From the NCBI RefSeq assembly GCF_015689195.1, contig NZ_CP065044.1, positions 1,922,001 to 1,986,000 of the forward strand: 64,000 nt of DNA, written 5' to 3'. Positions 33,360-50,831 of this stretch are shown piece after piece; positions within the stretch are counted from its first letter, which is position 1, and the number at the start of each line of letters is the position of its first letter. The notes under the pieces were generated by a model that ran no database searches, was not told the origin of the DNA, and saw nothing but the letters and a program-made list of their open reading frames with translations. Position numbers and translations under genes: made by a program. Source of the DNA: Pectobacterium aroidearum (GTDB lineage: Bacteria > Pseudomonadota > Gammaproteobacteria > Enterobacterales > Enterobacteriaceae).

Positions 33360-33360
33360 T

Positions 33361-35259: not shown

Positions 35260-35320
35260 TCCCCTTGCATGGCTTTCTCTTCTGTCTTTACGCGTTATCA
35301 GTGTCGTCATATTCCTCTGC

Positions 35321-35348: not shown

Positions 35349-35520
35349 ATCGAAAGGATTTTTATTTTTCAGTGTATTAGCCGTATTTTTTCAGATAAAT
35401 CACTTCGCTGTTTTTTCTAAAACAGATTAAAAGCCGCAGCTCGTCGTTATCCGGATACTAGCGCCATCAACACGATGTGCCACTAAAACATCGTGCCATC
35501 AAAACAGCGGGTGAACGGAT

Positions 35521-35988
35521 ATGAATACCAGACCAATTATCGATGCGGTGATAGCCCGCCTCCAGCAGCACTTACCGACGCGGCGGATCACGTCTTGCCC
35601 AGAAAACATTCTGAGCGAGCCCGATCGTCTGACGCTCGGTGATGTGCTGGTGGGATATCGCGGTTCCGAATTTTCCGCACCGGAAGATGTGGATTCTCCG
35701 GTTCAGACGCAGCGGCCACGGCTGATGGTTGCCGTGCTGTTACCGGAGCTGGATGGTGCAGATGGTGTGCTGGCTACGCTCGATACCGTCCGTCAGGCGT
35801 TGGGAGGATACCGACTGCCTGACTGCCATCGCGGTATCCGGTTAGTTCGTGACCGCTACGTGGGTTACACCGAAGGACGCTGGCATTACGCCATCGATTG
35901 CACCACTGAAACCCTGTTTATCGAAGACCGCGAGCAGACGGATGGTCCGCTGCTTACCACGGTTAATTATGAGGAGAAAGACGCATGA
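35521..35988 (+). CDS. Phage protein of the DUF1834 (Mu gp37-like) family
   Basis: 155 residues. A mixed alpha/beta protein with PRLMVAVLLPELDGADGVL in the middle and RLVRDRYVGYTEGRWHYAID towards the end. In Mu-like phages this family precedes the sheath gene and is thought to be a tail-completion protein. It overlaps the next gene by 4 bp (ATGA) in the typical phage manner. Confidence 0.75.
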   Translation: MNTRPIIDAVIARLQQHLPTRRITSCPENILSEPDRLTLGDVLVGYRGSEFSAPEDVDSPVQTQRPRLMVAVLLPELDGADGVLATLDTVRQALGGYRLPDCHRGIRLVRDRYVGYTEGRWHYAIDCTTETLFIEDREQTDGPLLTTVNYEEKDA

Positions 35989-36182
35989 AGTATCGCTATA
36001 CCGGCCCCGCCAGCGGCGTCACGCTGGCAGATGGTCAGGAAATTCTGCTTTGGCCCGCTCAGGTTACTGAACTGCCAGCAGATCATGAGTACGTGAAAAC
36101 GCTGATCGCGCTGGGCTATTTGCTGCCTGTCGCAGGTCAGAATCTGGCTGATAGCGAAACGGAGGTGACCCTTGGCCGCTAA
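35985..36182 (+). CDS. Small phage protein of the DUF2635 (Mu gp38-like) type
   Basis: 65 residues. MKYRYTGPASGVTLADG and ILLWPAQVTELPADHEYVKTL suggest a small beta-rich protein. It lies between the gp37-like gene and the sheath gene as in Mu. It ends 11 bp inside the sheath gene; its 3' end supplies the sheath ribosome site GGAGGTG. Confidence 0.75.
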   Translation: MKYRYTGPASGVTLADGQEILLWPAQVTELPADHEYVKTLIALGYLLPVAGQNLADSETEVTLGR

Positions 36183-37599
36183 TTATTTACACGGTGTAGA
36201 AACGATTGAAGTTGAAACCGGTGCTCGTCCGGTGAAAACCGTCAAATCTGCGGTAATTGGGTTGATTGGTACGGCGCCACAGGGGGCGGTCAATGACGTT
36301 ACGCTGTGCCTGTCCGAAAAAGACGCGGCACAGTTTGGTAGCCAGTTCGGCGGCTACACCATCCCGCAGGCGCTGGATGCGATTTACGATCATGGTGCGG
36401 GTACGGTTCTGGTTATCAACGTGCTGGATCCGGCGAAACACAAATCGTCGGTGAGCGCAGAAAAAGTCACCTTTGACAAAGCGACGGGTACGGCACAACT
36501 GACGAACCGTGTGGTTGCCAAAGTGGTGCTGACGGCGGCAGAAGGCGGCCAGCCGTTTGTCGAAGGTCAGGACTATACGCTGGATGCACAAACTGGCGTA
36601 CTGAAAAATCTGGGTAAAAATATCGATGCCGCCGCTGTAGTCAGCGCGTCTTATGACTTTGCTGATGTTACGAAAGTGACTGCCGCTGACATCATCGGCA
36701 GCATCAATGCCGCGGGCAAACGCACCGGTATGAAGCTGCTGAACGATACCTACAACCTGTACGGCTTCTTTGCCAAGATTCTGATTTCGCCGGTGTTCTG
36801 TACGCAAAATAGCGTAACGACCGAGCTGATCGCGTTGGCGGACAAACTGGGCGCGATTGCCTACATCGATGCGCCAATCGGTACCACTTTTGCGCAAGCG
36901 TTGAGCGGTCGTGGCCCGGAAGGCACGATCAACTTCAACACCAGCTCTGAACGCGCTCGTCTGTGCTATCCGCACGTAAAAGTGTACGACGCGGAAACCA
37001 ACAGCGAACGTCTGGAACCGCTGTCGGCGCGTGCTGCTGGCCTGCGTGCCAAAGTCGATCTGGAGAAAGGTTTCTGGTGGTCATCGTCCAATCAGGAAAT
37101 CAAAGGGATCACCGGCGTAGAGCGCCAGCTGTCCGCGATGATTGACGATCCGCAGAGCGAAGTGAACCTGCTGAACGAGCAGGGCATCAGCACCATTTTC
37201 AACAGCTACGGTTCTGGATTGCGTCTGTGGGGCAACCGTACCGCAGCCTGGCCAACCGTGACGCACATGAAGAACTTTGAAAACGTGCGTCGTACTGGCG
37301 ATGTGATTAACGAATCCATCCGCTATTTCAGCCAGCAGTACATCGACATGCCGATCAATCAGGCGCTGATCGATGCGCTGGTGGAATCGGTCAACGCCTA
37401 CGGTCGCAAGTTGATCGGTGACGGCGCGCTGCTGGGCTTCAAATGCTGGTTCGATGCCGCGCGTAACGAGCAAACCGAGTTGGCGGCAGGGCACCTGTTG
37501 CTTAACTACAAATTCACTCCGCCGCCGCCGCTTGAGCGTCTGACCTTTGAGACGGAGATCACCTCGGAATACCTGGTAACGCTGGAGGGCACTAACTGA
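36172..37599 (+). CDS. Contractile tail sheath protein
   Basis: 475 residues from TTG 36172 (GGAGGTG upstream). N-terminal LHGVETIEVETGARPVKTVK and the segments AIYDHGAGTVLVINVL, AYIDAPIGTTFAQAL and LWGNRTAAWPT are typical of Mu/P2-type sheaths (TIGR/phage_sheath_1 group). The polymer contracts to drive the inner tube through the target envelope. The C-terminal domain (from about 370) forms the inner, conserved core. It overlaps the tube gene by one base. Confidence 0.93.
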   Translation: MAANYLHGVETIEVETGARPVKTVKSAVIGLIGTAPQGAVNDVTLCLSEKDAAQFGSQFGGYTIPQALDAIYDHGAGTVLVINVLDPAKHKSSVSAEKVTFDKATGTAQLTNRVVAKVVLTAAEGGQPFVEGQDYTLDAQTGVLKNLGKNIDAAAVVSASYDFADVTKVTAADIIGSINAAGKRTGMKLLNDTYNLYGFFAKILISPVFCTQNSVTTELIALADKLGAIAYIDAPIGTTFAQALSGRGPEGTINFNTSSERARLCYPHVKVYDAETNSERLEPLSARAAGLRAKVDLEKGFWWSSSNQEIKGITGVERQLSAMIDDPQSEVNLLNEQGISTIFNSYGSGLRLWGNRTAAWPTVTHMKNFENVRRTGDVINESIRYFSQQYIDMPINQALIDALVESVNAYGRKLIGDGALLGFKCWFDAARNEQTELAAGHLLLNYKFTPPPPLERLTFETEITSEYLVTLEGTN

Positions 37600-38123
37600 T
37601 GGCCGGGAAAATTGAAGTAAACCGTATTACTAACGCCAACATCTACATCAACGGCACTAACCTGCTGGGGCGTGCGCAGGAAATCAAACTGCCAGATGTC
37701 TCCATGATTATGCAGGAGCACAAGGCGCTGGGCATGGTCGGCAAGATCGAACTGCCTGCGGGCTTCGACAAGCTGGAAGGCGAGATCAAATGGAACTCCT
37801 TCTACCGCGAAGCGATGCTGGCGGCGGCGAATCCGTACCAGTCGCTGGCGCTACAGTGTCGCTCCAGCGTGGAACGCTATGGTTCTCAAGGCCGTATCGA
37901 AGAAGTGCCGCTGGTGACGTACATGACCATCATGTTCAAAAAGAATCCGCTGGGCACGTTCAAGCAGCACGAAAACCCAGATTTCAGCAGCGCGTTCAAC
38001 TGCACCTACATCAAACAGGTGATGAACGGTGAAGACCTGCTGGAACTGGATTACATGTCCAACATCTTCATGGTGGGCGGCGTGGATCAACTGAACAGCT
38101 ACCGCGCCAATATCGGCGGTTAA
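37599..38123 (+). CDS. Tail tube protein (P2 FII-like)
   Basis: 174 residues. MAGKIEVNRITNANIYINGT and LPDVSMIMQEHKALGMVGKI match the FII tube family of contractile tails. It forms the rigid inner tube that is pushed through the outer membrane. It directly follows the sheath gene as in P2 and Mu. Confidence 0.92.
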   Translation: MAGKIEVNRITNANIYINGTNLLGRAQEIKLPDVSMIMQEHKALGMVGKIELPAGFDKLEGEIKWNSFYREAMLAAANPYQSLALQCRSSVERYGSQGRIEEVPLVTYMTIMFKKNPLGTFKQHENPDFSSAFNCTYIKQVMNGEDLLELDYMSNIFMVGGVDQLNSYRANIGG

Positions 38124-38179
38124 TTTATCTTCCAGGCCCGTCAGTGAGGCGGGCGTTTCTATCAATCAGTGAGGAGACT

Positions 38180-38476
38180 ATGTCAGCAAAAGTATTTGAT
38201 ATTATCGACTTGGAAAATAATATTCATTTCCAGTGCCGTGAGGATGTCTACATTTTGGATGCAGGAGAAGAAGCGGGTTTTACTTTACCCTATTCGAGTC
38301 GTGCTGGCGCAGACCCGTCATCGGCAGCACGTTTGATTTCTGGTCAGGTCGATCAAAGTGATGGTTCCTATTTAGATGACAACCAGAAAGCGGCAGGCTT
38401 CTTTCTGACGGATACCTCTTACCCGCTAAGCAACTGTGTTGTTCGCTTCTTTGCAGAAGATGAGCTGCATCGTTAA
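38180..38476 (+). CDS. Unrecognised 98-residue protein within the tail gene cluster
   Basis: Start ATG 38180 with GAGGAGAC upstream. Acidic, soluble, no signal peptide. MSAKVFDIIDLENNIHFQC, then LPYSSRAGADPSSAARLISG. I do not recognise a family, and P2 and Mu have no extra gene at this point. The codon usage is more AT-rich than the tube gene. It ends at its own strong hairpin terminator, so it looks like an inserted cargo gene (a moron) or an accessory tail component. Confidence 0.7.
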   Translation: MSAKVFDIIDLENNIHFQCREDVYILDAGEEAGFTLPYSSRAGADPSSAARLISGQVDQSDGSYLDDNQKAAGFFLTDTSYPLSNCVVRFFAEDELHR

Positions 38477-38501
38477 TTATCAATATTCACGTTATCGTAA
38501 T

Positions 38502-38527
38502 GAAAGGGGCTTCGGCCCCTTTCTTAT
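38502..38527 (+). terminator. Terminator with TTCG tetraloop
   Basis: GAAAGGGGC (38502-38510), loop TTCG, GCCCCTTTC (38515-38523), then TTATG. A 9-bp perfect stem with an extra-stable loop. The T tract is short. Confidence 0.75.
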
Positions 38528-38615
38528 GCCTGCCGCTTTCGTTTTCTAATTCACTTTAAAATCGTTATTCCTCGCCGCACGCGATACTGCTCCCGACATT
38601 TACTAAGGAGCCGTT

Positions 38616-38936
38616 ATGCACACTGAAACTTATTCTCTGCAATTCCCTTACACCACTTCTGCCGGTCAACGCGTGGAGTCCATTTCGCTCAAGCGTCTGA
38701 AAGTCAAAGACATCAAAGCGGTGAAAAAAATCAGCGATGACCCAAGCAACTGGGACGACGCGCTGCTGTCGCGCATGACCGGCCTGGTGCCGGAAGACAT
38801 CGATGAGATGGACGCGCAGGACTACATGGCGCTGCAAAAACGATTTCAGCAGTTACTTGGGTTGGATAACGCAGCCGGCGCTGCTGTGGAAAGCACAAGC
38901 CCTGCTGGCGAGGTGGTTTCGCTTTCAGCCGAGTGA
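38616..38936 (+). CDS. Tail assembly chaperone (gpE / Mu gp41-like)
   Basis: 106 residues. LQFPYTTSAGQRVESISLKR and KVKDIKAVKKISDDPSNW fit the small tail chaperone that precedes the tape-measure gene. In this family a ribosomal frameshift produces an extended form. Here a second open frame, shifted by +1 (equal to -2), runs from inside this gene to 39024. It encodes LWKAQALLARWFRFQPSEID and a helical end. A five-A run at 38836-38840 allows a perfect -2 slip of tRNA-Lys. Confidence 0.82.
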   Translation: MHTETYSLQFPYTTSAGQRVESISLKRLKVKDIKAVKKISDDPSNWDDALLSRMTGLVPEDIDEMDAQDYMALQKRFQQLLGLDNAAGAAVESTSPAGEVVSLSAE

Positions 38937-39024
38937 GATTGATGCGCTGGAACTGGACGACTTTGAACGCTGGCTGGATGAAGCCAGCGAACAGATAAAA
39001 CGTGAGAACGGTGAGGAAGACTGA
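38839..39024 (+). CDS. Frameshift extension of the tail chaperone (E')
   Basis: Open frame overlapping the chaperone's 3' end, with no convincing start codon or ribosome site of its own. The sequence LLARWFRFQPSEIDALELDD followed by FERWLDEASEQIKRENGEED resembles the extension made by recoding in contractile-tail phages. If slippage occurs at CAAAAAC (38835-38841), the fused product is about 136 residues. Confidence 0.65.
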   Translation, partial: NDFSSYLGWITQPALLWKAQALLARWFRFQPSEIDALELDDFERWLDEASEQIKRENGEED

Positions 39025-39062
39025 TTACTGACAGGATTAATTAGGCCACCATCCACCCAACC

Positions 39063-39090
39063 CGGCCAGCGACAGGACGCTGGCCGTTTT
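39063..39090 (+). terminator. Terminator between chaperone and tape-measure genes
   Basis: CGGCCAGCG (39063-39071), loop ACAGGA, CGCTGGCCG (39078-39086), TTTT. Perfect 9-bp stem. Confidence 0.75.
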
Positions 39091-39179
39091 CCTCCCTCAC
39101 CACCTGTCTTCTTCTCCCGCTTATCACCTGTCCTTTTCCTCGCTTTATCCCCGGTTTGTGATGGGGAAACCTAACTGGA

Positions 39180-39223
39180 GCGGCGTAAGCCGCCGTCTCC
39201 GATCCGCCCCGCAAGGGGTTTTT
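39180..39223 (+). repeat. Two small hairpins with GNRA-type loops before the tape-measure gene
   Basis: GCGGC-GTAA-GCCGC (39180-39193) and CCCC-GCAA-GGGG followed by TTTTT (39207-39223). The second looks like a terminator although the tape-measure start is only 18 bp downstream. Confidence 0.6.
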
Positions 39224-39240
39224 CTGAATGAGAGTGAACC

Positions 39241-41724
39241 GTGGATATGCTTTTAAACGGTGTCATGCTGGGCAGGGCGTTTGGCGCCACGCTGGATGAC
39301 ACAAAAAAATCGCTGCAGCCACTTAGCGATAAACTCAAACAAGCTGAGGAGTGGCAGCGTCTGTTTAATCAGTCGCTGGAGCGCTTTGGCAATGTCAGTT
39401 TGCGCAGCACACAGGTGACATCCCGACTGAGCCAGTCACTAAGTAAATTGGTAACCAATCAGGAACGGCTGGAGAGTATCCAGTCACGTCAAGAAACACT
39501 ACGTAGCCGTCGGGGTGAACTCGCCGATGACTTTAAGACTAAGCGTGAGCAGTTTGGTTCTGTCATGAAGCCGATTGTGGCGTCGGTCACACGCTATGCG
39601 TCGTTTGAGGCGCAGTTGCGTGGCATCAGCGTTGCTCATGGGATATCGAGTGAGCAAGAAAAGTTGATGGGGCAGAAACTGCGTCAATCTTCTCAACAGG
39701 TGAACCAAAAGCCAGATGCATTGCTCGGTAGTGCCGGGCAACTGCTTGCTTACGGCATGTCACCGGATCAGGCAACGGATGTTGCGGCAGTATTGGGGAA
39801 AACGTCAACGGCCTCTGGCGCGGCGCTGTCCGATCTTACTGCACTTTCGGCCACGTTGGATGACGTGTTTAACCTGAAAGGGGCGAAGGCGCTGGAGGAA
39901 TCCTTCTCTCGCATGTTGGCAGGCACGAAACAAGGTTTCTCCATGGCGTCGATGACGCAATACGCGACTGCGCTGGCTCCAGGGTTTACGGCAATGGGGG
40001 CGACGGGCAATCAGGCGTTGAGTCAGTTGGTTTCCAGCCTGAGCGCGACAAAAGGCGCGGATACGGAGGCGAACACGGCTGCCCGGTTGGGAAGTTTCAT
40101 GAATGCCGTGGGACGAACCGACATTGCCGACAGCTACTACAACGCGGGCGTAGATTATAACGCGTCGCTAAAAAGCTACATGAAAGGCGGCTATTCACAG
40201 TACGACGCCGCAGTTCAGATTAGTAACCGATTCATCGACAGCAAAGGCAGTCAATTCCAGCAACTTTGGGATAAGGCCAGTAAAGCGGGCAACGTAGATG
40301 CACAGCAAAGTTTAATGCAGCGCTACGGATTGCAGGAGGTGTTCCGTACGCCAGAAGCTGTGAATCATGCGATGTCGATGAAGCAGAACTGGCAGAGCTA
40401 TCAAGCGAACCAACAGCGGATGAACAGTCCGGCAGCCATGCAAACGCTGGATCTCGACTTCGCCCGGCAGAATGACACATTGACTGGGCGCTGGAATCAA
40501 ATGACAACGTCAGTGATGAATATTGCACTCAATGTGGGGGAAGCGCTGACGCCAGTATTGGTTTCCTTGAGTGACATACTGATTCCTATTCTGGATCAAC
40601 TGGTGACCTGGACGGCGGCGAACCCTGAACTGGTTCGTGGGATCGTGATGGCCGTCGCTGGTTTCTTCGCGTTCAGAATGGCATTGAGCGGTGCGAAGCT
40701 GGGGATTACCACACTGTTATCGCCTTTACTGAGCGTTTGGGATGGTATTTTGCAGGTTCAGCGTGGCTGGCAGCTGTTCAATGCAGGATTAAGAACGACG
40801 GGTGTGTTGCAAGGGGTAGGCGCGGCGTTGAACTGGCTGGTTGGCGGAGCCGGAACATTAGGCCGCATGCTTGGCGGTGTGTTACGCAGCGGCTTTATGA
40901 TGGCGGGTCGAGCAGTATTGTTTCTAGGTCGTATGCTGCTGATGAATCCGATTGGCTTGGCAGTAACGGCATTCGCAGGGGCCGCTTACCTGGTTTACCG
41001 GTATTGGGAACCGATTAGTGCATTCTTTAAAAACCTCTGGTCACAAGTCAGTCAGGCTTTTAATGCTGGGTGGGAGGCACTCAATAATGCGGTATCCGGC
41101 GGAGTAGCTGGTATTGCGGCATTACTGCTCGACTGGTCACCATTTGGCGTGCTGTATTCCATCTTCGCTGATACCGTCAGCGAATTGGGTATTCAACTTC
41201 CCGGTAGTTTAAGTGAACTCGGTGGCGTGATTATTGATGCATTGGTTAAGGGACTGATCAGTTATTTCCCCGAGCTAAAAAACGTCCTGAAAACGATCAA
41301 TGAATTTATCCCTGATAGCGTTAAAGACTTTCTGGGTATCGGCTCGAAAAAAGTATCTGTAGAAGCCAGCGGCCAATCTGTGGCTGCTGGTGTTATGACC
41401 CCGCCAGTTCTGCAACCTACGTCGGTATCTGCATTGTCGCTACAGCCGACACTGCCTGTTGAATTACCTAAGACGGAAGACACAATGCCAACCCCGCAAC
41501 AGCGGGTTGCAATGTCATCATCTGTCGGCGGAGCGAAAGGTAAGTTAGTCAGCGCAGCCCCTTCCGAACGTGTTCAGGTTGCTTTTTCTCCCACCATTTA
41601 CCTCAACGGCCAGAAGGCTGCGCCAACGCCAGAAATGACGAAGACGCTGACCCTTAGCATGAATGAACTGGAAAATATGTTGAACAAGCTGCTCGCTCAG
41701 CGTGAGCGTAGGGGGTACGCCTGA
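39241..41724 (+). CDS. Tail tape-measure protein
   Basis: 827 residues from GTG 39241. Long coiled-coil N-terminal part (LSDKLKQAEEWQRLFNQSLE; LERFGNVSLRSTQVTSRLSQ). A TP901-type core with GISVAHGISSEQEKLM and repeated small-residue helices follows. Hydrophobic stretches near 465-490 and 545-595 are typical of tape measures, which insert into the target membrane. Its length sets tail length; 827 residues is about the size of the P2 protein. The last bases overlap the next start (ATGA-type junction). Confidence 0.9.
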   Translation: MDMLLNGVMLGRAFGATLDDTKKSLQPLSDKLKQAEEWQRLFNQSLERFGNVSLRSTQVTSRLSQSLSKLVTNQERLESIQSRQETLRSRRGELADDFKTKREQFGSVMKPIVASVTRYASFEAQLRGISVAHGISSEQEKLMGQKLRQSSQQVNQKPDALLGSAGQLLAYGMSPDQATDVAAVLGKTSTASGAALSDLTALSATLDDVFNLKGAKALEESFSRMLAGTKQGFSMASMTQYATALAPGFTAMGATGNQALSQLVSSLSATKGADTEANTAARLGSFMNAVGRTDIADSYYNAGVDYNASLKSYMKGGYSQYDAAVQISNRFIDSKGSQFQQLWDKASKAGNVDAQQSLMQRYGLQEVFRTPEAVNHAMSMKQNWQSYQANQQRMNSPAAMQTLDLDFARQNDTLTGRWNQMTTSVMNIALNVGEALTPVLVSLSDILIPILDQLVTWTAANPELVRGIVMAVAGFFAFRMALSGAKLGITTLLSPLLSVWDGILQVQRGWQLFNAGLRTTGVLQGVGAALNWLVGGAGTLGRMLGGVLRSGFMMAGRAVLFLGRMLLMNPIGLAVTAFAGAAYLVYRYWEPISAFFKNLWSQVSQAFNAGWEALNNAVSGGVAGIAALLLDWSPFGVLYSIFADTVSELGIQLPGSLSELGGVIIDALVKGLISYFPELKNVLKTINEFIPDSVKDFLGIGSKKVSVEASGQSVAAGVMTPPVLQPTSVSALSLQPTLPVELPKTEDTMPTPQQRVAMSSSVGGAKGKLVSAAPSERVQVAFSPTIYLNGQKAAPTPEMTKTLTLSMNELENMLNKLLAQRERRGYA

Positions 41725-42653
41725 TGTTTGCGGTATTAGGAAATATTGAATTTAAAGTGACCGCCTACTGGGACGGCTTTAATACGTCATTTGGTGCAGA
41801 TTATGCCGAGCATGGCCGTATTGAAGGTAAACCCGGTCTGCAGTTCATCGGTGCGAAGCTGGACGAGATTCGCATTAGCCTGGTGTTCCACAAGCAGTAC
41901 TGCACGCCGGATACGGAGTTGAAGCGGTTGAATGAGGCGATGCGGGCGCATCAGGCGATGGCGTTGGTCTTTGGTAATGGAGATTATCGCGGCTGGTTTG
42001 TGATTACCGCATTGACCTCGACCAGCCAACATACCGACGCGAAAGGCAACGTATTGGCCATGAATGCGGAGTTGACGCTGCGCGAATACATTGGCGATCC
42101 GAAGAATCCGCTCAAGCCACCGGCGATACAGACCTCTGTTCCTAATGTCAGTGCTATCACCAAGGCGGTCGAGAAAGTGAGCGACTTTGCGTCCTCATTA
42201 CGCACGGCTGTGACGTATGCCAAGAAGGCGCAATCGGCCTTTAAGGCGGTGAAAACCACCGTACAGATTGTAAAACGGATGAAGAAAAACCCTGAAACTG
42301 CGCTGTTGCAAATTCCCGGACTGCTAACGCAGGTCGGAAATGTATTGACGCCGTTAAGTGAGGTGGAACCGGCGTTTAAAAAAGCGGCTGAGGCTATTTC
42401 TGATGCAGCGGTTCAGGCAGAGAAGATGACGCCTGAAATTACAGCGGTTAATAAAGCAGCGAATGAAATGCTGAAGCAGGTTAAGCAAGTTGCCACTTTG
42501 TTGCAGGGCGTCGACAGCAAAAACGTTATCGAGAAGTTGGAAGCCATCAGCAAACATGTTGATGCCGCGAGCGACACATTTAAAGGCGCTGAACCTGCAC
42601 TGAGCAAACTGACGGCGGAAATCGTGAAGAGGGTTGAAGCATATGCACCTTGA
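41724..42653 (+). CDS. gpU-like tail protein with helical C-terminal extension
   Basis: 309 residues. The first 135 residues (VLGNIEFKVTAYWDGFNTSF to LTLREYIGDP) match the P2 gpU tail-terminator/hub group. The rest is a long Ala/Lys/Val-rich helical extension (KAVKTTVQIVKRMKKNPETA; KQVATLLQGVDSKNVIEKLE) not found in P2 gpU, which has about 160 residues. Comparable extended forms are known in tailocins. It overlaps gpX by 11 bp. Confidence 0.82.
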   Translation: MFAVLGNIEFKVTAYWDGFNTSFGADYAEHGRIEGKPGLQFIGAKLDEIRISLVFHKQYCTPDTELKRLNEAMRAHQAMALVFGNGDYRGWFVITALTSTSQHTDAKGNVLAMNAELTLREYIGDPKNPLKPPAIQTSVPNVSAITKAVEKVSDFASSLRTAVTYAKKAQSAFKAVKTTVQIVKRMKKNPETALLQIPGLLTQVGNVLTPLSEVEPAFKKAAEAISDAAVQAEKMTPEITAVNKAANEMLKQVKQVATLLQGVDSKNVIEKLEAISKHVDAASDTFKGAEPALSKLTAEIVKRVEAYAP

Positions 42654-42855
42654 ACATATCACTACACAGGGCGAACGCTGGGATACCTTATCCTATCGGT
42701 ATTACGGCGATCCGCTCGGCTATCCGCGTATTATTGCCGCGAACCCGCATGTCCCCATTGTGCCACTGTTGCCATCAGGCCTGGTGATGCTGATTCCGAT
42801 TATTGAACAGGCAGAGGCCAGTAAAGCGGAGGATACCCCACCATGGCTGCGTTAA
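42643..42855 (+). CDS. Tail protein X (LysM-like)
   Basis: 70 residues from ATG 42643 with GAGGG upstream. ITTQGERWDTLSYRYYGDP and the VPLLPSGLVMLIP end are the P2 gpX LysM-type signature. It is thought to act at the baseplate hub. It overlaps the next gene by 13 bp. Confidence 0.88.
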   Translation: MHLEHITTQGERWDTLSYRYYGDPLGYPRIIAANPHVPIVPLLPSGLVMLIPIIEQAEASKAEDTPPWLR

Positions 42856-44003
42856 CGGAAGAATTCAAGCTGCTTTCTCCCGCGGTGTCGGAAGTGCTGC
42901 AACCGACGTTCACCCTGTGGTATCAGCAAAAAGATATCACCAATGATATCGCCCCGTATGTCACCAGCGTGACATATACCGACAGCATTAAGAATGAATC
43001 GGATGCGATCGAGGTCCGGCTCGATGATACCGATGGTCGCTGGATGGATAAGTGGTATCCCGGTACGGGCGACACGCTGTCGCTCAAGCTAGGCTATCTC
43101 GGTGAAATGCTGTTTGACTGCGGCACGTTCTCGATTGATGAGATTGAGGTGAGTGCACCGCCTAGCCAAGTGATGATTCGTGGTGTGGCTACATCGGTTA
43201 ATCGCGCACTGCGAACCAAATCAAGCCGCGGTTTTGAAGATACAACGCTTGCCGCCATTGCGACGCGCATCGCGAAAAAGCATCAGTTAATGCTGGTGGG
43301 GATGATTGAGATCGTCAAAATCGATCGGGTTACGCAATATGCGGAAACCGATGTCGCTTTTCTAAAGCGGCTCGCCAGCGAATATGGCTATGTTGTGAAA
43401 GTGGTCAGCGACCAGCTGATTTTTTCCCATCTGGCAACGCTGCGTAGTCAGGCACCTATTCGGCAAATCCAGCCAACGGACGTCGCGCGTTTTTCACTGC
43501 GTGACACGATCAGCCACGTCTATAAAAACGCCAAGACGAAATATCAAAAGGGGAGTGAAAAGAAACTGGTGGTTTATGAAGCCGGCGGTGGTATGAAAAA
43601 CGAAATGAAGTCTGCGGGTGCTGAGACCAGTGCAGATACGTTGAAAGTTAACGCGCGCGCGGCGGATGCCTCTGGGGTGAGGATGAAAACGGATGCGGCA
43701 TTGGATGCGCACAACGAAAAGCAACAAACGGGGTCGATGACGCTGATGGGCAGCCCGCAGTTGGCGGCGGGGAATAAAGTGGAGCTGGTGTCGTTCGGCC
43801 AACTTTCTGGCCAGTGGCTGATCGAATCGGCTCGACACGTTCTGGAACGGGGGAGTGGCTACACGACAGAGATCAGTGTAACGCGTGGGCCGATTACGGC
43901 GGGCAAGCGTAAGCAGAATAGCGGGAAAACGCTGGTGACTTACCATCCGGACGGCAGCCAGACAACGCAGACGGTCAAGAGTAAAAAGGAGGTGCTTCCA
44001 TGA
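42843..44003 (+). CDS. Baseplate hub protein, P2 gpD-like
   Basis: 386 residues. The hub forms a pseudo-hexameric collar above the spike. IEVRLDDTDGRWMDKWYPGT, LSLKLGYLG, FDCGTFSIDEIEVSAPPSQV and QYAETDVAFLKRLASEYGYV are all typical of the gpD/VgrG-core family. The C-terminus ends in a lysine-rich strand (GKRKQNSGKTLVTYHPDGSQ). In P2-like phages gpD is also called the late control protein. It overlaps the spike gene by 4 bp. Confidence 0.9.
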   Translation: MAALTEEFKLLSPAVSEVLQPTFTLWYQQKDITNDIAPYVTSVTYTDSIKNESDAIEVRLDDTDGRWMDKWYPGTGDTLSLKLGYLGEMLFDCGTFSIDEIEVSAPPSQVMIRGVATSVNRALRTKSSRGFEDTTLAAIATRIAKKHQLMLVGMIEIVKIDRVTQYAETDVAFLKRLASEYGYVVKVVSDQLIFSHLATLRSQAPIRQIQPTDVARFSLRDTISHVYKNAKTKYQKGSEKKLVVYEAGGGMKNEMKSAGAETSADTLKVNARAADASGVRMKTDAALDAHNEKQQTGSMTLMGSPQLAAGNKVELVSFGQLSGQWLIESARHVLERGSGYTTEISVTRGPITAGKRKQNSGKTLVTYHPDGSQTTQTVKSKKEVLP

Positions 44004-44581
44004 GTTTATCTCGTCGAATTGGCACGATCAGTGCGGTGGATGAGGTTCGCGTGATGGTGCGCGTTCGTCTACCAGAGTGTGACAATCTGCGTACGGCCTG
44101 GCTGCCGGTATTACAGCGCAATACACAGAATAATAAGGATTACTGGTTGCCAGATATTGGCGAACAGGTCGAAGTTCTGCTGGACGGCAACGGCGAGGAT
44201 GGCCTGGTGCTAGGGGCGATTTACTCCGCTGCTGATGTGCCAACGCTGGCAGATAAGGACAAAAGGGCGGTAACGTTCGCTGACGGCGCGCATATTGAAT
44301 ACGATCGCCGAACGCATACGTTAACGATCAACGGCGGCGTGCAGCATATTGCGATTAGCAGCGGTACTGACGTGGTGGTTAACGCTCAGCGTGTCACGAT
44401 CAATGCGCCAGAGACAACGGTGACGGGCAAGCTACTGGTACAAGGGCAACTCACCTACGAGAGTGGGATGTCCGGTTCCGGCGGTGCCAGCCTCAGTGGC
44501 GATGTTAGTATCTCCGGCAACGTCAGCGCCAGCGGCAGCGTCATGGACGCTGGCGGCAATTCCAATCACCACTCGCACTAG
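44000..44581 (+). CDS. Baseplate spike protein gpV
   Basis: 193 residues. An OB-fold N-terminal domain (RRIGTISAVDEVRVMVRVRL; YWLPDIGEQVEVLLDGNGED) is followed by a beta-helix of short repeats (SGDVSISGNVSASGSV). The C-terminal tip is NSNHHSH, in keeping with the His-X-His iron-binding apex known for P2-type spikes. The trimer forms the membrane-piercing needle. Confidence 0.92.
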   Translation: MSLSRRIGTISAVDEVRVMVRVRLPECDNLRTAWLPVLQRNTQNNKDYWLPDIGEQVEVLLDGNGEDGLVLGAIYSAADVPTLADKDKRAVTFADGAHIEYDRRTHTLTINGGVQHIAISSGTDVVVNAQRVTINAPETTVTGKLLVQGQLTYESGMSGSGGASLSGDVSISGNVSASGSVMDAGGNSNHHSH

Positions 44582-44619
44582 TGTTTCCCTAAACCGCTTT
44601 ACAATTTCTTCCTCTCACC

Positions 44620-44638
44620 GGGGGCGACAATAGCCCCC
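44620..44638 (+). promoter_or_regulatory. Hairpin covering the translation start of gpW
   Basis: GGGGGC (44620-44625), loop GACAATA, GCCCCC (44633-44638), directly before ATG 44640. The only Shine-Dalgarno-like G run is within the stem. This would limit gpW initiation unless the stem is opened. The role is inferred. Confidence 0.5.
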
Positions 44639-44639
44639 T

Positions 44640-44987
44640 ATGAAAACTCAATCTGTTTTTTGGCAACCGGCGCTGCAACGTTCTGGCGAGATCGTCGAAG
44701 GAACGGCAGATATCATGCAGGCGATTCACATCATCCTGCGGACACCCTGCGGCAGTGACCCACATCGGCCTGACTTTGGTAGCAATCTACATCTTTATCT
44801 CGATTATCCGATCGATCGTGCGATCCCGCATGTCGTCAGGGAGTCGGTAGACGCGATCAAACGATGGGAACCTCGCTGCCAGCTACTGGCGGTTAAACCT
44901 TCTGTGAATGGGGCTCACCTGACGCTGCATGTTAGCTGGAAAACCGCTAACGGCGCGACACAGACCACGGAGTTGTTATGGCGCTGA
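44640..44987 (+). CDS. Baseplate wedge protein gpW (gp25-like lysozyme fold)
   Basis: 115 residues. IHIILRTPCGSDPHRPDFGS is the hallmark of the T4 gp25/P2 gpW family, which nucleates sheath assembly at the baseplate. The start is ATG 44640. It overlaps gpJ by 10 bp. Confidence 0.92.
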   Translation: MKTQSVFWQPALQRSGEIVEGTADIMQAIHIILRTPCGSDPHRPDFGSNLHLYLDYPIDRAIPHVVRESVDAIKRWEPRCQLLAVKPSVNGAHLTLHVSWKTANGATQTTELLWR

Positions 44988-46081
44988 CAGAACCCAATTT
45001 TATTGAACGCGATGCGGCGAAGATTACCGCCGAAATGATCGCGAAATATGAAGCTGATTCAGGGAAAACACTCTATCCGGCGCAGGCCGAACGCCTGCTG
45101 ATCAACCTCTTTGCTTACCGGGAAACTTTATTGCGTAGTGCGGTCCAGGAAACCGCCAAGCAGAACCTGGTCGCGTTTGCTCGTGCACCGATGCTGGATT
45201 ATCTGGCGGAACTGGTCGGCGTCTCCCGTTTGGCAGCGCAGCCAGCGCGCGCAGAGCTTCGCTTTACCCCCGAAACGCCGTTAGTCAGCGATCTGCTGAT
45301 TCCTGCGGGCACTCGCGTGAGCGCATCGGACAGCGTGATTTTCACCACTGACAGCGACGCGCTGCTGAGAGCGAACGGCAACGGGGTCACCGTACTGGCG
45401 ACCTGTACCGAAAGTGGCGATGTGGGCAATGACTGGCTGCCTGCCCAGATTAGTACGCTGCTGGATGAGATTGGCGACAGTGATTTACGCGTCGTCAATA
45501 TCAGCAAAAGCAGCGGCGGTTCCGCTGAAGAAGATGACGATCGCCTGCGTGAACGTGTTCAACTGGCACCGGAATCGTTCAGTACGGCGGGATCGAAACT
45601 GGCGTATCGCTTCCATGCGATGCGAGCACACCAAAACATTGTCGATGTGGCAGTGATGTCGCCCGAACCAGGTGAAGTGGTGCTGTATCCGTTGCTCAGT
45701 ACTGGCCTGCCGGACAGTAGCATGCTTTCGCTGGTGGAAAGTTTTTGCTCCGACGAACAGGTGCGTCCGTTGACGGATTTGGTCTCCGCCAAATCGCCTA
45801 AACAGGTGGATTACGCCATTAACGCCAAATTGACGTTGTTTAACGGTGAACAGGCTGGCGTCGTTCAGGCTGCGGCGGAGAAAGCGGTACAGGCCTGGGT
45901 TGAAACCCGAACCGCTACGCTGGGGCGCGACATTGTTCCAAGCCAGATTATTGCCACGCTTTCTATTCCCGGCGTGTATCAGGTGGAACTAACTTCGCCG
46001 TCATTGATGGTGCTTGATGACAGTGAATGGGCGAACTGTACAGGCATCAATGTCAGCGTCGTCGGGGTGTCGAATGGCTGA
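44978..46081 (+). CDS. Baseplate assembly protein gpJ
   Basis: 367 residues. LTEPNFIERDAAKITAEMIA and YRETLLRSAVQETAKQNLVA at the N-terminus, then a beta-domain (LLIPAGTRVSASDSVIFTTD) and DDDRLRERVQLAPESFSTAG, are typical of the gpJ/T4 gp6 wedge family. It forms the iris that opens when the fibre binds. It overlaps the gpI gene by 8 bp. Confidence 0.93.
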   Translation: MALTEPNFIERDAAKITAEMIAKYEADSGKTLYPAQAERLLINLFAYRETLLRSAVQETAKQNLVAFARAPMLDYLAELVGVSRLAAQPARAELRFTPETPLVSDLLIPAGTRVSASDSVIFTTDSDALLRANGNGVTVLATCTESGDVGNDWLPAQISTLLDEIGDSDLRVVNISKSSGGSAEEDDDRLRERVQLAPESFSTAGSKLAYRFHAMRAHQNIVDVAVMSPEPGEVVLYPLLSTGLPDSSMLSLVESFCSDEQVRPLTDLVSAKSPKQVDYAINAKLTLFNGEQAGVVQAAAEKAVQAWVETRTATLGRDIVPSQIIATLSIPGVYQVELTSPSLMVLDDSEWANCTGINVSVVGVSNG

Positions 46082-46655
46082 TTCACTACAACTGCTGCCA
46101 CCGCCTCTGGCTGCCGATGCCCGCTTTCGCTCGCTGGCGGAGCTGGCCGACCGCTTCGATGACATCGATCTGAATACCTTACTGGTTTATCTGATCGATA
46201 TTGCAGACAGCAGCGCGTTGCCCTGGCTGGCAGAACAGTTCTCGTTGTTTGGTGACGGTTGGGAGCTGGCGGAATCGGATGATTCCAAACGTGCGCTGAT
46301 CAAAGCCGCTATCGATCTGCATCGCAGCAAAGGGACGCCCTGGAGCATTAAAGAGATCATCCGCCGCTTTGGCTTCGGTGACAGCACGCTGATCGAGAAC
46401 ATTGGCCGCCTGAGTTATGACGGTGAAACCACCTACAACAACCTGTATGTGCACGGCGACAAAGCGGCCTGGGCGGTTTATCGCGTGCTGCTAAAACAAC
46501 CGATTACCAACGATCAGGCCAGAATGTTGCGCAATGCCATTGGGATGTTTGCCCCGGCACGGTGTCACCTGGCCAGCATCGAATATTGGGAAGTGCCTAT
46601 CCGCTACAACCGGACGGCAATATACGACAGTAACTACAATCATGGGAGCGCTTGA
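46074..46655 (+). CDS. Baseplate protein gpI
   Basis: 193 residues from ATG 46074. LLPPPLAADARFRSLAELAD is the N-terminus typical of gpI; IDLHRSKGTPWSIKEIIRRF is the conserved centre. It anchors the tail fibre to the wedge. An earlier start at 46014 overlaps gpJ more and is not used. Confidence 0.92.
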   Translation: MADSLQLLPPPLAADARFRSLAELADRFDDIDLNTLLVYLIDIADSSALPWLAEQFSLFGDGWELAESDDSKRALIKAAIDLHRSKGTPWSIKEIIRRFGFGDSTLIENIGRLSYDGETTYNNLYVHGDKAAWAVYRVLLKQPITNDQARMLRNAIGMFAPARCHLASIEYWEVPIRYNRTAIYDSNYNHGSA

Positions 46656-46657
46656 AC

Positions 46658-48670
46658 ATGGCGAATTTGTCAGAGAACCCGCAATGGGTTGACGGCATTT
46701 ACCAAATCGAAACGTCAGATCCGGTCGTAGGTGGACCGGATGGCGTTTCAAACCGACAGGCTAAAGAATTGGCCAGTCGTACCAGCTATTTGAAAAAAGA
46801 GCAGGAAAAAACGGGCAGCGATTTGGCGACGCACGCCGCTGCCGCCGATCCGCATACGCAATACGCGCCGAAGGCGAATCCAACCTTCACCGGCACGCCG
46901 AAAGCGCCAACGCCAGCAATGGATAGTAATAGCCAGCAGATTGCGACGACGGCGTTTGTACGCTCGGTTAGTGCGACGAAACTGGCGAAAGATCAAAACG
47001 GGGCAGATATTCCTGATCGAGAGCTGTTCAACCGCAATCTCGGTTCATCGCGTGCATACAGTTCTTCGATCCCAATTGGAGGAAGCGATGGTTTATGGAC
47101 AACCGCTGAGTTCATTGGCTGGTTAGAAAGCCAAGGGGCTTTTGTTCATGCTTATTGGGTTTGTCGTGGTTCGTGGTCATACGCTCACAATAAAATCATC
47201 TCTGACACTGAGTGTGGCCAGATACCACTGGCTGGTTCTGTTGTTGAGGTCATGGGGCAAAACGATGCCACGACAATCAGGATAACAACGCCTTCAACAA
47301 CGCCAAGTGGGCTTAGTGATTCAGCTAATGCACAATTTACTTATGTCTATAACGGTGGTGATTATTCTCCAGGTTGGCGACGTGATTACAATACGAAGAA
47401 TAAACCGACTGCGGCTGATGTTGGCGCGTTACCAGTGAATGCTGTTGCCCAGGCGGCCGCAAAGCTGGCTACTCCGCGCGCCATCAACGGTGTGCCGTTT
47501 GATGGTACGGCCAATATTGCACTGACTCCCGCAAATATTGGCGCATTGCCAGCGTCAGGAACGGCGGTGTCTGCTGCAAAATTAGCCGTCGCGAGAAAGA
47601 TTGCTGGTGTGGCATTTGACGGCACGGCAGATATAAATATTAATTCTCAAGGTATTTTCTCGGCATCGTTATCTATCGGCAATGCTGTTGACTTGAACGC
47701 TTATACCACGCCGGGACTATATCATCAGGCTGCAAATGTTCAGGCAGCATCGGGCAAAAATTACCCAGAGGCGCAGGCAGGTTCGCTTGAAGTTCTGAAA
47801 CATGCTGGCATTACTCAAGTTTACCGTATTTACAACAACTCCCGCTGTTACAAACGAACCCAGTATTCGGGAGTGTGGTCTGCATGGGTGCTGGATTACG
47901 ATACTGAAAATAAGCCTACTGCAGCAGATATTGGTGCTATGGCAAAAACAGATGCTGATAATAATTATGTGCGACAGGGCTCATCCGGTGTTGTTTATAA
48001 GAATGATGATCTTGCATGGAATAGCCCTACTGGTGCGTATTTAAAAGATAACGGTACACATTCATCCCTAATTTGGCATATGGGATTAAATACCGGTTCG
48101 GCATCAGCAGCTCAGTTTTATTTTGACTTTGCTAATGGCGGAATAAAATATCGAAGCTCGCGTGATAATAGTGGTTTTGAAAAACCGTGGGCACGTATTT
48201 ATAGCGATCAAGATAAACCTACTGCTGCTGAAATTGGGGCATTACCAGTTGCAGGAACTGCGGTGTCGGCCACTAAATTGGCCACACCTCGGAAAATTAA
48301 CGGTGTAAATTTTGATGGCTCGGCTGATATAACGTTAACTCCCGCAAATCTCGGTTTTAAAGAAATCACTGAAACGGGATCGGGAGCAGGATATTACTGG
48401 CGAAAATATGCGGATGCGGCGATAGAGCTTTTTGCCAGCGAAGAAGTTGTAATGGGTTCGAATAAAAATGTTGTATTTCCCATTAAGATCAATGAGGTGA
48501 TTTTTATCACTGGAAGCGATATCGGGGGATATAATGCTGGAAATGCGTATACGCTACGAATTTCTAATGTAACAAACGCCGGATTTTTGGTTTCATGGGA
48601 TAGATTTAATGAGAATGGTATTTGGAACAAGAAAACACTTTACTACCATATAATCGCTAAATCTGCATAA
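46658..48670 (+). CDS. Tail fibre protein (P2 gpH-like), receptor-binding
   Basis: 670 residues from ATG 46658 (GGGAGCG upstream). The N-terminal baseplate-binding part has VDGIYQIETSDPVVGGPDGV and DPHTQYAPKANPTFTG. The shaft contains three similar modules with KPTAAD/EIGALP followed by LATPRxINGVPFDGTANI-type repeats (about 246-320, 420-440 and 525-570). The last ~100 residues, from TPANLGFKEI onward, form the likely receptor-binding tip and are AT-richer. No chaperone gene follows: the IS element and remnants stand where one is expected. Confidence 0.9.
   Translation: MANLSENPQWVDGIYQIETSDPVVGGPDGVSNRQAKELASRTSYLKKEQEKTGSDLATHAAAADPHTQYAPKANPTFTGTPKAPTPAMDSNSQQIATTAFVRSVSATKLAKDQNGADIPDRELFNRNLGSSRAYSSSIPIGGSDGLWTTAEFIGWLESQGAFVHAYWVCRGSWSYAHNKIISDTECGQIPLAGSVVEVMGQNDATTIRITTPSTTPSGLSDSANAQFTYVYNGGDYSPGWRRDYNTKNKPTAADVGALPVNAVAQAAAKLATPRAINGVPFDGTANIALTPANIGALPASGTAVSAAKLAVARKIAGVAFDGTADININSQGIFSASLSIGNAVDLNAYTTPGLYHQAANVQAASGKNYPEAQAGSLEVLKHAGITQVYRIYNNSRCYKRTQYSGVWSAWVLDYDTENKPTAADIGAMAKTDADNNYVRQGSSGVVYKNDDLAWNSPTGAYLKDNGTHSSLIWHMGLNTGSASAAQFYFDFANGGIKYRSSRDNSGFEKPWARIYSDQDKPTAAEIGALPVAGTAVSATKLATPRKINGVNFDGSADITLTPANLGFKEITETGSGAGYYWRKYADAAIELFASEEVVMGSNKNVVFPIKINEVIFITGSDIGGYNAGNAYTLRISNVTNAGFLVSWDRFNENGIWNKKTLYYHIIAKSA
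48339..48364 (+). other. Candidate relic of an inversion crossover site in the fibre gene
   Basis: A 26-bp window with the central TC and right half GGTTTTAAAGAA resembles the right half of the Gin/Cin-type site (about 9 of 12 positions). The left half matches only about 6 of 12. It encodes the junction TPANLGFKEI before the variable tip. Weak and asymmetric, so only a candidate. Confidence 0.3.
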
Positions 48671-48673
48671 ATT

Positions 48674-48695
48674 GTGGCCCTATTGGGCCACTTTT
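48674..48695 (+). terminator. Terminator after the tail fibre gene
   Basis: GTGGCCC (48674-48680), loop TATT, GGGCCAC (48685-48691), TTTTC. It comes 3 bp after the stop. Confidence 0.85.
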
Positions 48696-48818
48696 CATTG
48701 TCAGCCTTAAACCACCTCCTCGGGAGGTGGTGATTGTACTTGTGAGGCTATAGCCTGAAGGAAGCCCATGCCAGAAAATTCCAGCTTACTCACCACAAGT
48801 AAGAAGGAAATCACTGAT

Positions 48819-49256
48819 ATGAGCAGTTATAGAAGTTCAGCACATGTGTTTTGGCGTTGCAAATACCACTTGGTTTGGACCCCAAAATATCGCTACAAGA
48901 TTTTAATGGGCATAGTAGGGAAAGAGCTTTACCGTTCGATTTACATACTTTGCAATATGAAAGATTGCGAGATATTGGAACTAAATGTTCAACCAGACCA
49001 TGTTCATCTTGTAGTGATGGTTCTACCGAAACTCTCAATTTCAACGCTAATGGGCGTCCTGAAAGGGCGCACGGCTATTCGTCTGTACAATAAATTCCCG
49101 CATATAAGAAAGAAAATGTGGGGTAATCACTTTTGGGCTAGAGGATACTTTGCGGACACGGCGGGAGTGCACGAAGAAATTATCAGACGTTACGTGAGGC
49201 ATCAGGATAAGAAAGACCAAGAGTACGAACAGCAAATGGAGTTATTGCAGGATTAA
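48819..49256 (+). CDS. tnpA: IS200-type Y1 transposase TnpA
   Basis: 145 residues from ATG 48819 (AAGAAGGAAA upstream). The HUH metal-binding motif is DHVHLVV (His61, His63); the likely catalytic tyrosine is Tyr125 in RRYVRHQ. FWRCKYHLVWTPKYRYK is the common N-terminus. The frame is intact, so the element may still be active. A longer start at 48768 is less likely. Confidence 0.93.
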   Translation: MSSYRSSAHVFWRCKYHLVWTPKYRYKILMGIVGKELYRSIYILCNMKDCEILELNVQPDHVHLVVMVLPKLSISTLMGVLKGRTAIRLYNKFPHIRKKMWGNHFWARGYFADTAGVHEEIIRRYVRHQDKKDQEYEQQMELLQD

Positions 49257-49267
49257 AACGGACAAGA

Positions 49268-49282
49268 CCCCCTTCTAGGGGG
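49268..49282 (+). terminator. Hairpin after the transposase gene
   Basis: CCCCC (49268-49272), loop TTCTA, GGGGG (49278-49282), shortly after the tnpA stop. Confidence 0.5.
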
Positions 49283-49345
49283 CCCCACTTAAAGCCACCT
49301 CTTCAAGAGGTGGATTTTTACATTAAATATAAGGTTCTATGGTTT

Positions 49346-49531
49346 CTATTTGATATCGTAAACAATAATAGTTGCCATATCAGTACGCAACATGGCAGTG
49401 CTAATGGACGTCGGTTGATTATCTGCATCTATGGTGACCGAATCTAGTGAGTCATCAAAATCATAATGAGATGAATATGACGAGGAAACTATAGGTGCAT
49501 TTTTTACTGAAACAGGTTTATTAAGCGTTAT
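49346..49531 (-). pseudogene. C-terminal remnant of a second tail fibre, reversed
   Basis: An open frame on the minus strand ending at TAG 49348-49346. It reads ITLNKPVSVKNAPIVSSSYS and ends RTDMATIIVYDIK, about 60 residues. It has no start codon in a reasonable context. Its upstream side meets the invertase remnant at about 49531. Composition (Ser, Thr, Asp, Asn, low Lys) and an AT bias like the tip of the forward fibre suggest an alternative fibre end. Opposite orientation next to an invertase is the layout of a fibre-switching cassette. Confidence 0.6.
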
Positions 49532-49753
49532 ATCGTCGAGCGCACGCGGGCTGGCCTTGATGCTGCTCGGTTGCAGGGGCGCATTGGTGGTCGAAAGCGA
49601 CTGATGACGCCAGATGTGTTTTGTCGTGCTAAAGCGATGTTGGCGACAGGGGCGACCCGCCTTCAGGTGGCGAATATCGTCGGTGTATCAGAGAAAACCA
49701 TCTATAAATACTTTCCCGCCCGGAGTCAGGGCGACGTTCCTGCTGCTGGCTAA
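49532..49753 (+). pseudogene. Truncated Gin/Hin-type DNA invertase, C-terminal part only
   Basis: An open frame to TAA 49753 region reads IVERTRAGLDAARLQGRIGG then a DNA-binding helix-turn-helix (LQVANIVGVSEKTIYKYFPA). This is the E-helix and C-terminal domain of serine invertases of the Gin/Hin/Pin group. The N-terminal catalytic domain with the active serine is missing. The stop is within the window and no start codon precedes it sensibly, so the gene is dead. Confidence 0.85.
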
Positions 49754-49862: not shown

Positions 49863-50831
49863 ATGGATTACACCAAAATTATCAAAGAAGTGGGGCGCGG
49901 GAAAAATCATGCGCGTGATGTCGATCAGGCCACGGCTTATGAATTGTATAGCGCGATGCTGCGTGGCGACGTGCCAGATCTGGAACTCGGTGGGCTGTTG
50001 ATTGCGTTTCGCATCAAAGGCGAATCCGAAGCCGAAATGCTGGGTTTTTATCAGGCGATGGACGAGTATGTGTTGCGCCTGAATCCGCCAGCGGGATTCC
50101 CTATGCCCATCGTGCTTCCTAGCTATAACGGCGCGCGGAAACAGGCGAATCTGACGCCGCTGTTGGCGCTGCTGCTGGCAAAGTTGGGTTTTCCTGTCGT
50201 GGTTCACGGCGTCAGCGACGACCCAACCCGTGTCACCAGCGCGGAGATTTTGCGTAATCTCGGCGTGACGATTGCAGAGAATGCCGAGCAGGCTCAGCGC
50301 GAGCTTGATAACGGTAGCCCGGTATTTATCCCCGTCTCGACACTGTGTCCTGCCATCGATCGCCAGTTACAGCTGCGTTGGCGTATGGGCGTGCGTAACA
50401 GCAGCCACACGCTGGCCAAGGTCGCGACGCCGTTTGGTGAAAGCGACGCGCTGCGTGTCGCCAGCGTTTCCCACCCTGAATACGTTTCCCGCGTGGGGAC
50501 GTTTTTTCACGATATCAATGGACGTGCGCTTCTGATGCACGGCACGGAAGGGGAGGTTTATGCTAACCCGCAGCGCTGCCCAGAGATTCATTTTATTCAT
50601 CAGCAAAACACTAAAGTGCTGCAACTGCGGCAGGATATCAGCGTCGCACCCGATGCGTTGCCTATTGCGAAGGATGCTGCCACCACTGCGCGTTGGACGG
50701 TACAATGCCTGACAGGCGAAATTGCTATCCCGCAGGCGATTCGCCTGCAACTGGCGTGTTGTCTGGTTGCTGCCGGCGAAGCGGCGACAATGGAACAGGC
50801 TGTCGCTACGATTAAGAAACGCCTTGGCTGA
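49863..50831 (+). CDS. ybiB: YbiB, nucleic-acid-binding anthranilate phosphoribosyltransferase homologue (TrpD2 family)
   Basis: 322 residues; E. coli YbiB has 320. It shares the TrpD fold but lacks the trp pathway function. YTKIIKEVGRGKNHARDVDQ and LELGGLLIAFRIKGESEAEM form the helical domain; VVHGVSDDPTRVTSAEIL and MGVRNSSHTLAKVATPF follow. In E. coli it lies directly after dinG and binds nucleic acid nonspecifically. Here it is separated from dinG by the prt and tailocin block. Confidence 0.92.
   Translation: MDYTKIIKEVGRGKNHARDVDQATAYELYSAMLRGDVPDLELGGLLIAFRIKGESEAEMLGFYQAMDEYVLRLNPPAGFPMPIVLPSYNGARKQANLTPLLALLLAKLGFPVVVHGVSDDPTRVTSAEILRNLGVTIAENAEQAQRELDNGSPVFIPVSTLCPAIDRQLQLRWRMGVRNSSHTLAKVATPFGESDALRVASVSHPEYVSRVGTFFHDINGRALLMHGTEGEVYANPQRCPEIHFIHQQNTKVLQLRQDISVAPDALPIAKDAATTARWTVQCLTGEIAIPQAIRLQLACCLVAAGEAATMEQAVATIKKRLG

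What the first reader, a model, noticed from the sequence alone, without database searches (positions are those of the whole stretch)
48339..49753. Collapsed fibre-switching cassette: fibre, IS200, reversed fibre end, dead invertase
After the intact tail fibre come an IS200-type element, a minus-strand piece of a second fibre C-terminus (49346-49531) and the C-terminal domain of a Gin/Hin-type invertase without its catalytic part. Carotovoricin and Mu/P1 switch fibre tips by inversion, with alternative tips in opposite orientation and an invertase next to them. The order here is what remains after a deletion whose junction is near 49531. The tailocin would then be fixed on one receptor specificity. 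No fibre chaperone gene remains, so fibre folding may depend on another locus or the particle may be non-functional.
Basis: partly seen in the sequence, partly recalled or inferred. Interest (0 to 1): 0.8.

Follow-up and report, generated by a model that had tools for sequence, protein, structure and literature searches.

The report
Collapsed tail-fibre switch in a tailocin
A bacterium of a soft-rot genus carries a phage-tail-like weapon whose DNA switch for swapping between two target-recognition tips has been broken by a deletion, most likely locking the weapon onto one tip; such switches are known in this genus and often missing, so this is a clear fossil of a known system.

Summary
Behind the intact fibre gene of a carotovoricin-type tailocin lie a 623-bp IS200 element, the reversed C-terminal end of a second fibre tip (49346-49536, minus strand) and the last 73 codons of the DNA invertase Ein (49532-49753). 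Another genome of the genus (G010) has the same two tips the other way round: the window's silent tip is expressed, its expressed tip lies reversed, two inverted crossover sites are present and Ein is intact. The window keeps one crossover site; its left half matches G010's fibre-side site (one base changed), its right half G010's Ein-side site, as expected after one inversion. A same-species genome (G059) has an intact 191-aa Ein, and homology with the window resumes exactly at 49532. Against G010 about 0.83 kb is missing: the inner part of tip A, the second site and 118 Ein codons. Inversion is most likely impossible and tip B fixed. Absence of ein in about half of carotovoricins is published. 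New here are this scar and reversed-tip scars in six other genomes of the genus.

The parts
33030..46655 (+). Rest of the P2-like tailocin (carotovoricin-type) cluster: holin, transglycosylase, sheath, tube, tape-measure-like ORF, GpU, GpD, GpV/spike, gp25/GpW, GpJ, GpI
   Evidence: Pfam hits; ORFs. The 827-aa tape-measure-like ORF (39241-41724) had no Pfam hit and is named by position and length only.
46658..48670 (+). Intact tail fibre gene, 670 codons from ATG 46658 (ORF listing gives a TTG start at 46652)
   Evidence: PHROG tail fiber protein E 1.2e-84. Its first 100 aa are 93-97% identical in 18 of the 19 other fibre-bearing loci; in the 19th, G021, two frameshifted pieces at 92 and 89%
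48339..48364 (+). The single remaining crossover site, inside the fibre gene; one C-to-T change in the 12-bp core, silent in the protein (both codons Asn)
   Evidence: left half equals G010's fibre-side site apart from that core base, right half equals G010's ein-side site; no second site with up to 2 core mismatches between fibre start and ybiB
48365..48670 (+). Tip B, the variable fibre tip now expressed
   Evidence: 88% identical over 359 bp to the reversed silent tip of G010; 61% aa identity to the active tip of G003
48674..48695 (+). Hairpin plus T-run after the fibre gene, terminator-like
   Evidence: Read from the sequence; the hairpin is present at the same place in G010
48699..49321 (+). 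IS200-type element inserted between the ends of the two convergent tips; transposase ORF 48768-49256
   Evidence: one copy in this genome, 97-98% copies over 620-623 bp in G021 (five) and G023 (six)
49346..49536 (-). Tip A remnant: reversed C-terminal end of the alternative fibre tip (stop codon at 49346-49348); lacks about 54 bp near its end that G010 and G001 have
49532..49536 (.). Joint between tip A and ein: the tip alignment ends at 49536, the ein alignment starts at 49532
49532..49753 (+). ein remnant: codons 119-191 of 191, helix-turn-helix part, no ATG start seen
49863..50831 (+). ybiB, the conserved right-hand flank of the tail fibre locus
   Evidence: named as flank in PMC13195805 (section 7 read)

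Best explanation
This is a decayed Ein-type fibre-inversion cassette of a carotovoricin-like tailocin. In the ancestor two inverted crossover sites, one inside the fibre gene and one just before ein, flanked tips A and B in opposite orientations, and Ein flipped the segment to choose the expressed tip. The present arrangement is the 'tip B on' orientation. A deletion of about 0.83 kb (measured against G010) removed the inner part of silent tip A, the second crossover site and the first 118 of 191 Ein codons. With one site and no catalytic domain the segment should no longer invert, so the tailocin should always carry tip B. The IS200 between the tips is a separate insertion. Shown by sequence: both tips, the recombinant crossover site, the truncation, no second site, no complete Ein found elsewhere in this genome. 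Inferred: loss of switching in the cell, one fixed receptor specificity, particle function, and the order of insertion and deletion.
For: Mirror-image intact cassette in G010: tip A expressed, tip B reversed, ein intact, ybiB behind. The window's crossover site combines the left half of G010's fibre-side site with the right half of its ein-side site. Same-species genome G059 has a full 191-aa Ein, two inverted sites and other tips; homology to the window resumes at 49532 at 98.9% over 469 bp. One site left in the window. A search of the whole genome with a complete Ein finds only this remnant and one 35% match with stop codons inside. Intact Ein is 64% identical to phage Mu Gin, and the 12-bp core of the intact sites equals the core at Mu's annotated G-segment boundaries. 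Tip B looks constrained: dN/dS 0.26 against G010 and 0.17 against G003, 100 codons each.
Against: No reads or cultures were examined, so absence of inversion is inferred. The ein remnant is still in frame and differs from G059 at 3 of 219 bases, so a short peptide from a TTG start cannot be ruled out, though it would lack the catalytic part. The flanks are close to G059 (95% up to 47016, 98.9% from 49532) while most of the sequence between does not align with it (only a 131-bp and a 339-bp stretch at 87 and 82%, and a weak 71% one), so the locus may have been exchanged, and the joint may have arisen before or during that exchange. The window site taken alone matches Mu's sites in 17 of 26 bases, no better than the best of 60 shuffles (17; mean 15.65); its identity rests on the sites of related genomes.
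Confidence: 0.9

Rival explanations
1. The fibre locus was imported already collapsed, or the illegitimate joint formed during exchange of fibre loci between strains, so there was no internal deletion in this lineage. The end product, a fixed tip B, is the same.
For: Window and same-species G059 agree on both flanks but largely not between 47017 and 49531. Exchange of fibre loci across the genus is published (PMC13195805, abstract and sections 7 and 11 read).
Against: The ein remnant is 99% identical to the same-species Ein but 80-90% to the other matches of 136 bp or more, so the ein side looks native; the joint lies in sequence with no homology beyond about 5 bp.
Confidence: 0.3
2. The IS200 caused the collapse by an adjacent deletion.
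For: The IS200 lies inside the cassette, between the tips.
Against: Both ends of the element are complete and its insertion is clean against G010; the joint is 211 bp away inside tip A sequence. G003 carries the same tip pair collapsed without an IS200 match.
Confidence: 0.05
3. The cassette still switches, with a recombinase acting in trans on cryptic sites.
For: Not excluded without reads. A 35% match to Ein lies elsewhere in the genome.
Against: That match contains stop codons; no second site with up to 2 core mismatches lies between fibre start and ybiB; tip A has lost its inner part, so an inversion could not give a whole fibre.
Confidence: 0.03
4. The ein 3' remnant is kept because the DNA-binding domain alone, or DNA in it, still serves something, such as occupancy of the remaining site or a flank for exchange of fibre loci.
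For: Seven of 25 genomes keep a truncated ein, all next to ybiB; in the window the frame is open and HTH_7 still scores.
Against: Eight fibre-bearing genomes have no ein trace. The remnants differ in length, and that of G003 is frameshifted. The window remnant is so close to G059 (3 of 219 bases) that an open frame needs no selection.
Confidence: 0.07

Closest known systems
Carotovoricin tail fibre locus with Ein invertase (Pectobacterium; Nguyen et al. 2001, seen only as cited in PMC13195805; not held in the library)
   Same: Same place between the tail protein gene and ybiB, same N-terminal fibre part, same invertase, tips in opposite orientation
   Different: One tip is truncated, one crossover site and the Ein catalytic domain are gone; no Tfa gene was found with these two tips
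Phage Mu G segment with Gin (NC_000929)
   Same: Order fibre, reversed alternative fibre end, invertase; Ein 64% identical to Gin; the 12-bp core of intact Pectobacterium sites is identical to Mu's
   Different: Mu has an assembly protein gene with both tips and a complete invertase; the window has neither, and its one site has a core change
Carotovoricins without ein (193 of 365, from 172 of 365 with ein in PMC13195805)
   Same: Fibre locus without a complete ein
   Different: The paper's main text, in the sections and passages seen, treats ein as present or absent; reversed-tip and ein scars are not described there. Its supplements were not seen.
IS200/IS605 elements
   Same: Y1 transposase, hairpin ends, insertion without a large change of the flanks
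   Different: Nothing noted; an ordinary member

Membership tests
Ein/Gin-type fibre inversion cassette (functional) | Complete serine invertase with catalytic domain next to the segment | tested here: not met
   Only codons 119-191 remain; no Resolvase hit for the 60-aa ORF
Ein/Gin-type fibre inversion cassette (functional) | Two inverted crossover sites flanking the segment | tested here: not met
   One site at 48339; none on the ein side
Ein/Gin-type fibre inversion cassette (functional) | Recombinational enhancer bound by Fis (recalled feature) | not tested
   No search made
Ein/Gin-type fibre inversion cassette (descent, decayed copy) | Alternative fibre tip in opposite orientation | tested here: met
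   49346-49536 homologous to the expressed tips of G010 and G001
Ein/Gin-type fibre inversion cassette (descent, decayed copy) | Half of the crossover site travels with the tip | tested here: met
   Window site = left half of G010's fibre-side site (one core base differs) + right half of its ein-side site
Carotovoricin (P2-like tailocin of Pectobacterium) | Contractile-tail and lysis genes, fibre locus next to ybiB | tested here: met
   head genes were not searched for
Carotovoricin (P2-like tailocin of Pectobacterium) | Produces bactericidal particles | not testable with these tools
   Needs induction and killing assays
IS200/IS605-type element (Y1 transposase) | Y1 transposase, discrete ends, clean insertion | tested here: met

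The most novel reading that the evidence does not exclude
Collapse of the fibre switch is a recurrent and selected outcome in this genus: separate events in several species remove Ein function and the alternative tip while the expressed tip stays intact, fixing one specificity and moving tip diversity from inversion within a strain to exchange between strains. Of 13 fibre-bearing loci without a full-length ein, 7 (the window and 6 others) carry reversed tip or Tfa remnants and 6 show none. G003 has the same tip pair collapsed with a different joint and an IS630-type fragment. Selection was not tested.
Probability: 0.25. Interest if true: 0.55.

Novelty: new member of a known kind. Interest (0 to 1): 0.36.

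Why it matters
Published work found ein in only 172 of 365 carotovoricins (PMC13195805) and called its absence unexpected. This locus shows at base level how a switch can be lost: the orientation it had, the joint, and a same-species genome that still has Ein. Reversed remnants in 7 of 13 loci without a full-length ein suggest that ein-less loci often descend from switching ones, which could be tested on the published genomes.

Tried and rejected
Lost chaperone: rejected. By similarity to two Tfa proteins of G004 and by ORFs, a Tfa follows the active tip in 10 of the 19 fibre-bearing loci tabulated and in 9 none was found, among them all loci with tip A or tip B active (G010, G001, G003, window); a very divergent Tfa could be missed. 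The window genome has one Tfa-family gene far away (PF02413, G000:C1:1729113-1729469).

IS200 as cause: rejected, see rivals. Decay of the crossover core as a mark of lost Ein: inconclusive. Six of 7 loci with full-length ein (5 intact, 2 frameshifted) show two sites with an exact core; G016, ein intact, shows only the ein-side site. Of the 13 loci without full-length ein, 5 keep one exact-core site, 2 (window, G003) have one core change, and 6 show no site.

Phage relatives of the two tips: none at E 1e-3 in 50,697 phage records. Solved structures for tip B: nothing meaningful, best E 0.72. Structure prediction of tip B: not obtained, machine busy at each of six tries. Papers: listings only; PMC13195805 read as abstract, sections 7 and 11 and passages; Nguyen et al. 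2001 not held.

Full report
What is there. The window belongs to a 5.0-Mb one-contig genome. The cluster from 33030 is a P2-like tailocin: 8 of 9 ORFs scanned hit expected families (the tape-measure-like ORF hit none), with GpJ and GpI.

Mirror image in G010. I fetched the stretch upstream of ybiB from 22 other genomes of the genus given, plus five of other genera, and later one same-species genome, G059. With ybiB to the right, G010 reads: fibre N-terminus, tip A in frame, tip B reversed, Ein of 191 aa, ybiB. Window 48340-48698 matches G010 in reverse at 88%, and window 49322-49385 continues it without a gap in G010, so the 623 bases between are the IS200. The window's minus-strand piece matches G010's expressed tip A at 88% over 160 bp. 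G001 also expresses tip A (82%) and carries a third, short tip reversed beside an intact Ein.

Crossover sites. Six loci with full-length ein (G004, G010, G001 and G059 intact; G020 and G021 frameshifted) each have two inverted 26-bp sites with the identical core AAACCTCGGTTT, one in the fibre gene and one just before ein; G016, with intact ein, shows only the ein-side one. This core is identical to that at phage Mu's annotated G-segment boundaries, and Ein is 64% identical to Gin over 182 aa. The window has one site, at 48339: its left half is that of G010's fibre-side site except one core base, its right half that of G010's ein-side site. That is the pattern expected if the inner half-site moves with its tip. 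The core change is silent in the fibre protein. Taken alone the window site matches Mu's in 17 of 26 bases, which 60 shuffles also reached at best.

The deletion. Tip A homology ends at 49536 and ein homology begins at 49532. In G059 the window's homology resumes at the same base, 354 bp after the ein start, so 118 of 191 codons are missing. From the coordinates, about 826 bp are missing against G010: 403 bp of tip A, one 26-bp site and 397 bp on the ein side. The tip A remnant also lacks about 54 bp near its end that G010 and G001 have. The remaining ein differs from G059 at 3 of 219 bases, so the loss looks recent.

What it does. With one site and no catalytic domain, inversion should be impossible; a whole-genome search found no other complete Ein. 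Tip B is then fixed. Its dN/dS is 0.26 against the silent copy in G010 and 0.17 against the active one in G003, as for a protein under constraint; this does not show function. Receptor and killing range are unknown, and no structure was obtained.

Chaperone. No Tfa was found with tip A or tip B in any locus with these tips (G010, G001, G003, window), while 10 of 19 tabulated loci with other tips do have one. In G010 only 53 bp separate the ends of the two tips. The absence is thus a property of these tips, not a loss.

How common. Of 25 genomes (one search examined all; 14 matched), ein is intact in 5 (G001, G004, G010, G016, G059), full-length but frameshifted in 2 (G020, G021), truncated in 7 (G000, G003, G011, G013, G017, G018, G022) and not found in 11, three of which (G002, G006, G009) show no fibre in the stretch fetched. 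G013 shows no fibre either, and the G017 contig ends before one. Among the 20 fibre-bearing loci, 13 lack a full-length ein; 7 of them (window, G003, G005, G008, G011, G018, G022) hold reversed tip or Tfa remnants and 6 (G007, G012, G014, G015, G019, G023) none (which covered 19 of the 20; G021, with frameshifted ein, was left out). G003 has the window's tip pair, but with a shorter tip A remnant, an IS630-type transposase fragment and another ein breakpoint, so its collapse looks separate.

What is known. PMC13195805 reports ein in 172 of 365 carotovoricins, exchange of fibre loci across the genus, and calls the absence of ein in about half unexpected (abstract, sections 7 and 11). In the passages searched there is no mention of truncated ein or transposons ('truncat' 0, 'transpos' 0, 'pseudogen' 0 in the main text); supplements were not seen. 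So the kind is known, and this locus is a well-resolved decayed member of it.

Noticed in passing
L038 (G016), about 3700-8200 in the fetched + orientation: Ein is intact and the ein-side site present, but no fibre-side site with up to 2 core mismatches was found; two long similar reversed ORFs and other ORFs sit inside the cassette and one Tfa is split. Possibly a second way of blocking the switch.
   Followed up: no
L045 (G013), about 9164-10001: A T1SS outer-membrane-type gene is followed by two ein fragments and ybiB, with no tailocin genes among the ORFs listed: the tailocin seems lost, leaving an ein scar.
   Followed up: partly
L043 (G003), 9109-10001 in the + orientation: Same tip pair as the window, collapsed differently: 27-aa reversed tip A end, IS630-type transposase fragment, frameshifted ein remnant.
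   Followed up: partly
   Followed up: no
window 46652-49531 against L134 (G059): Same-species genomes carry largely unrelated fibre tips between near-identical flanks, as expected for exchange of fibre loci.
   Followed up: partly
L049 (G001), 8930-9300: A third, short tip (about 90 residues) lies reversed beside intact Ein, opposite an active tip A.
   Followed up: no
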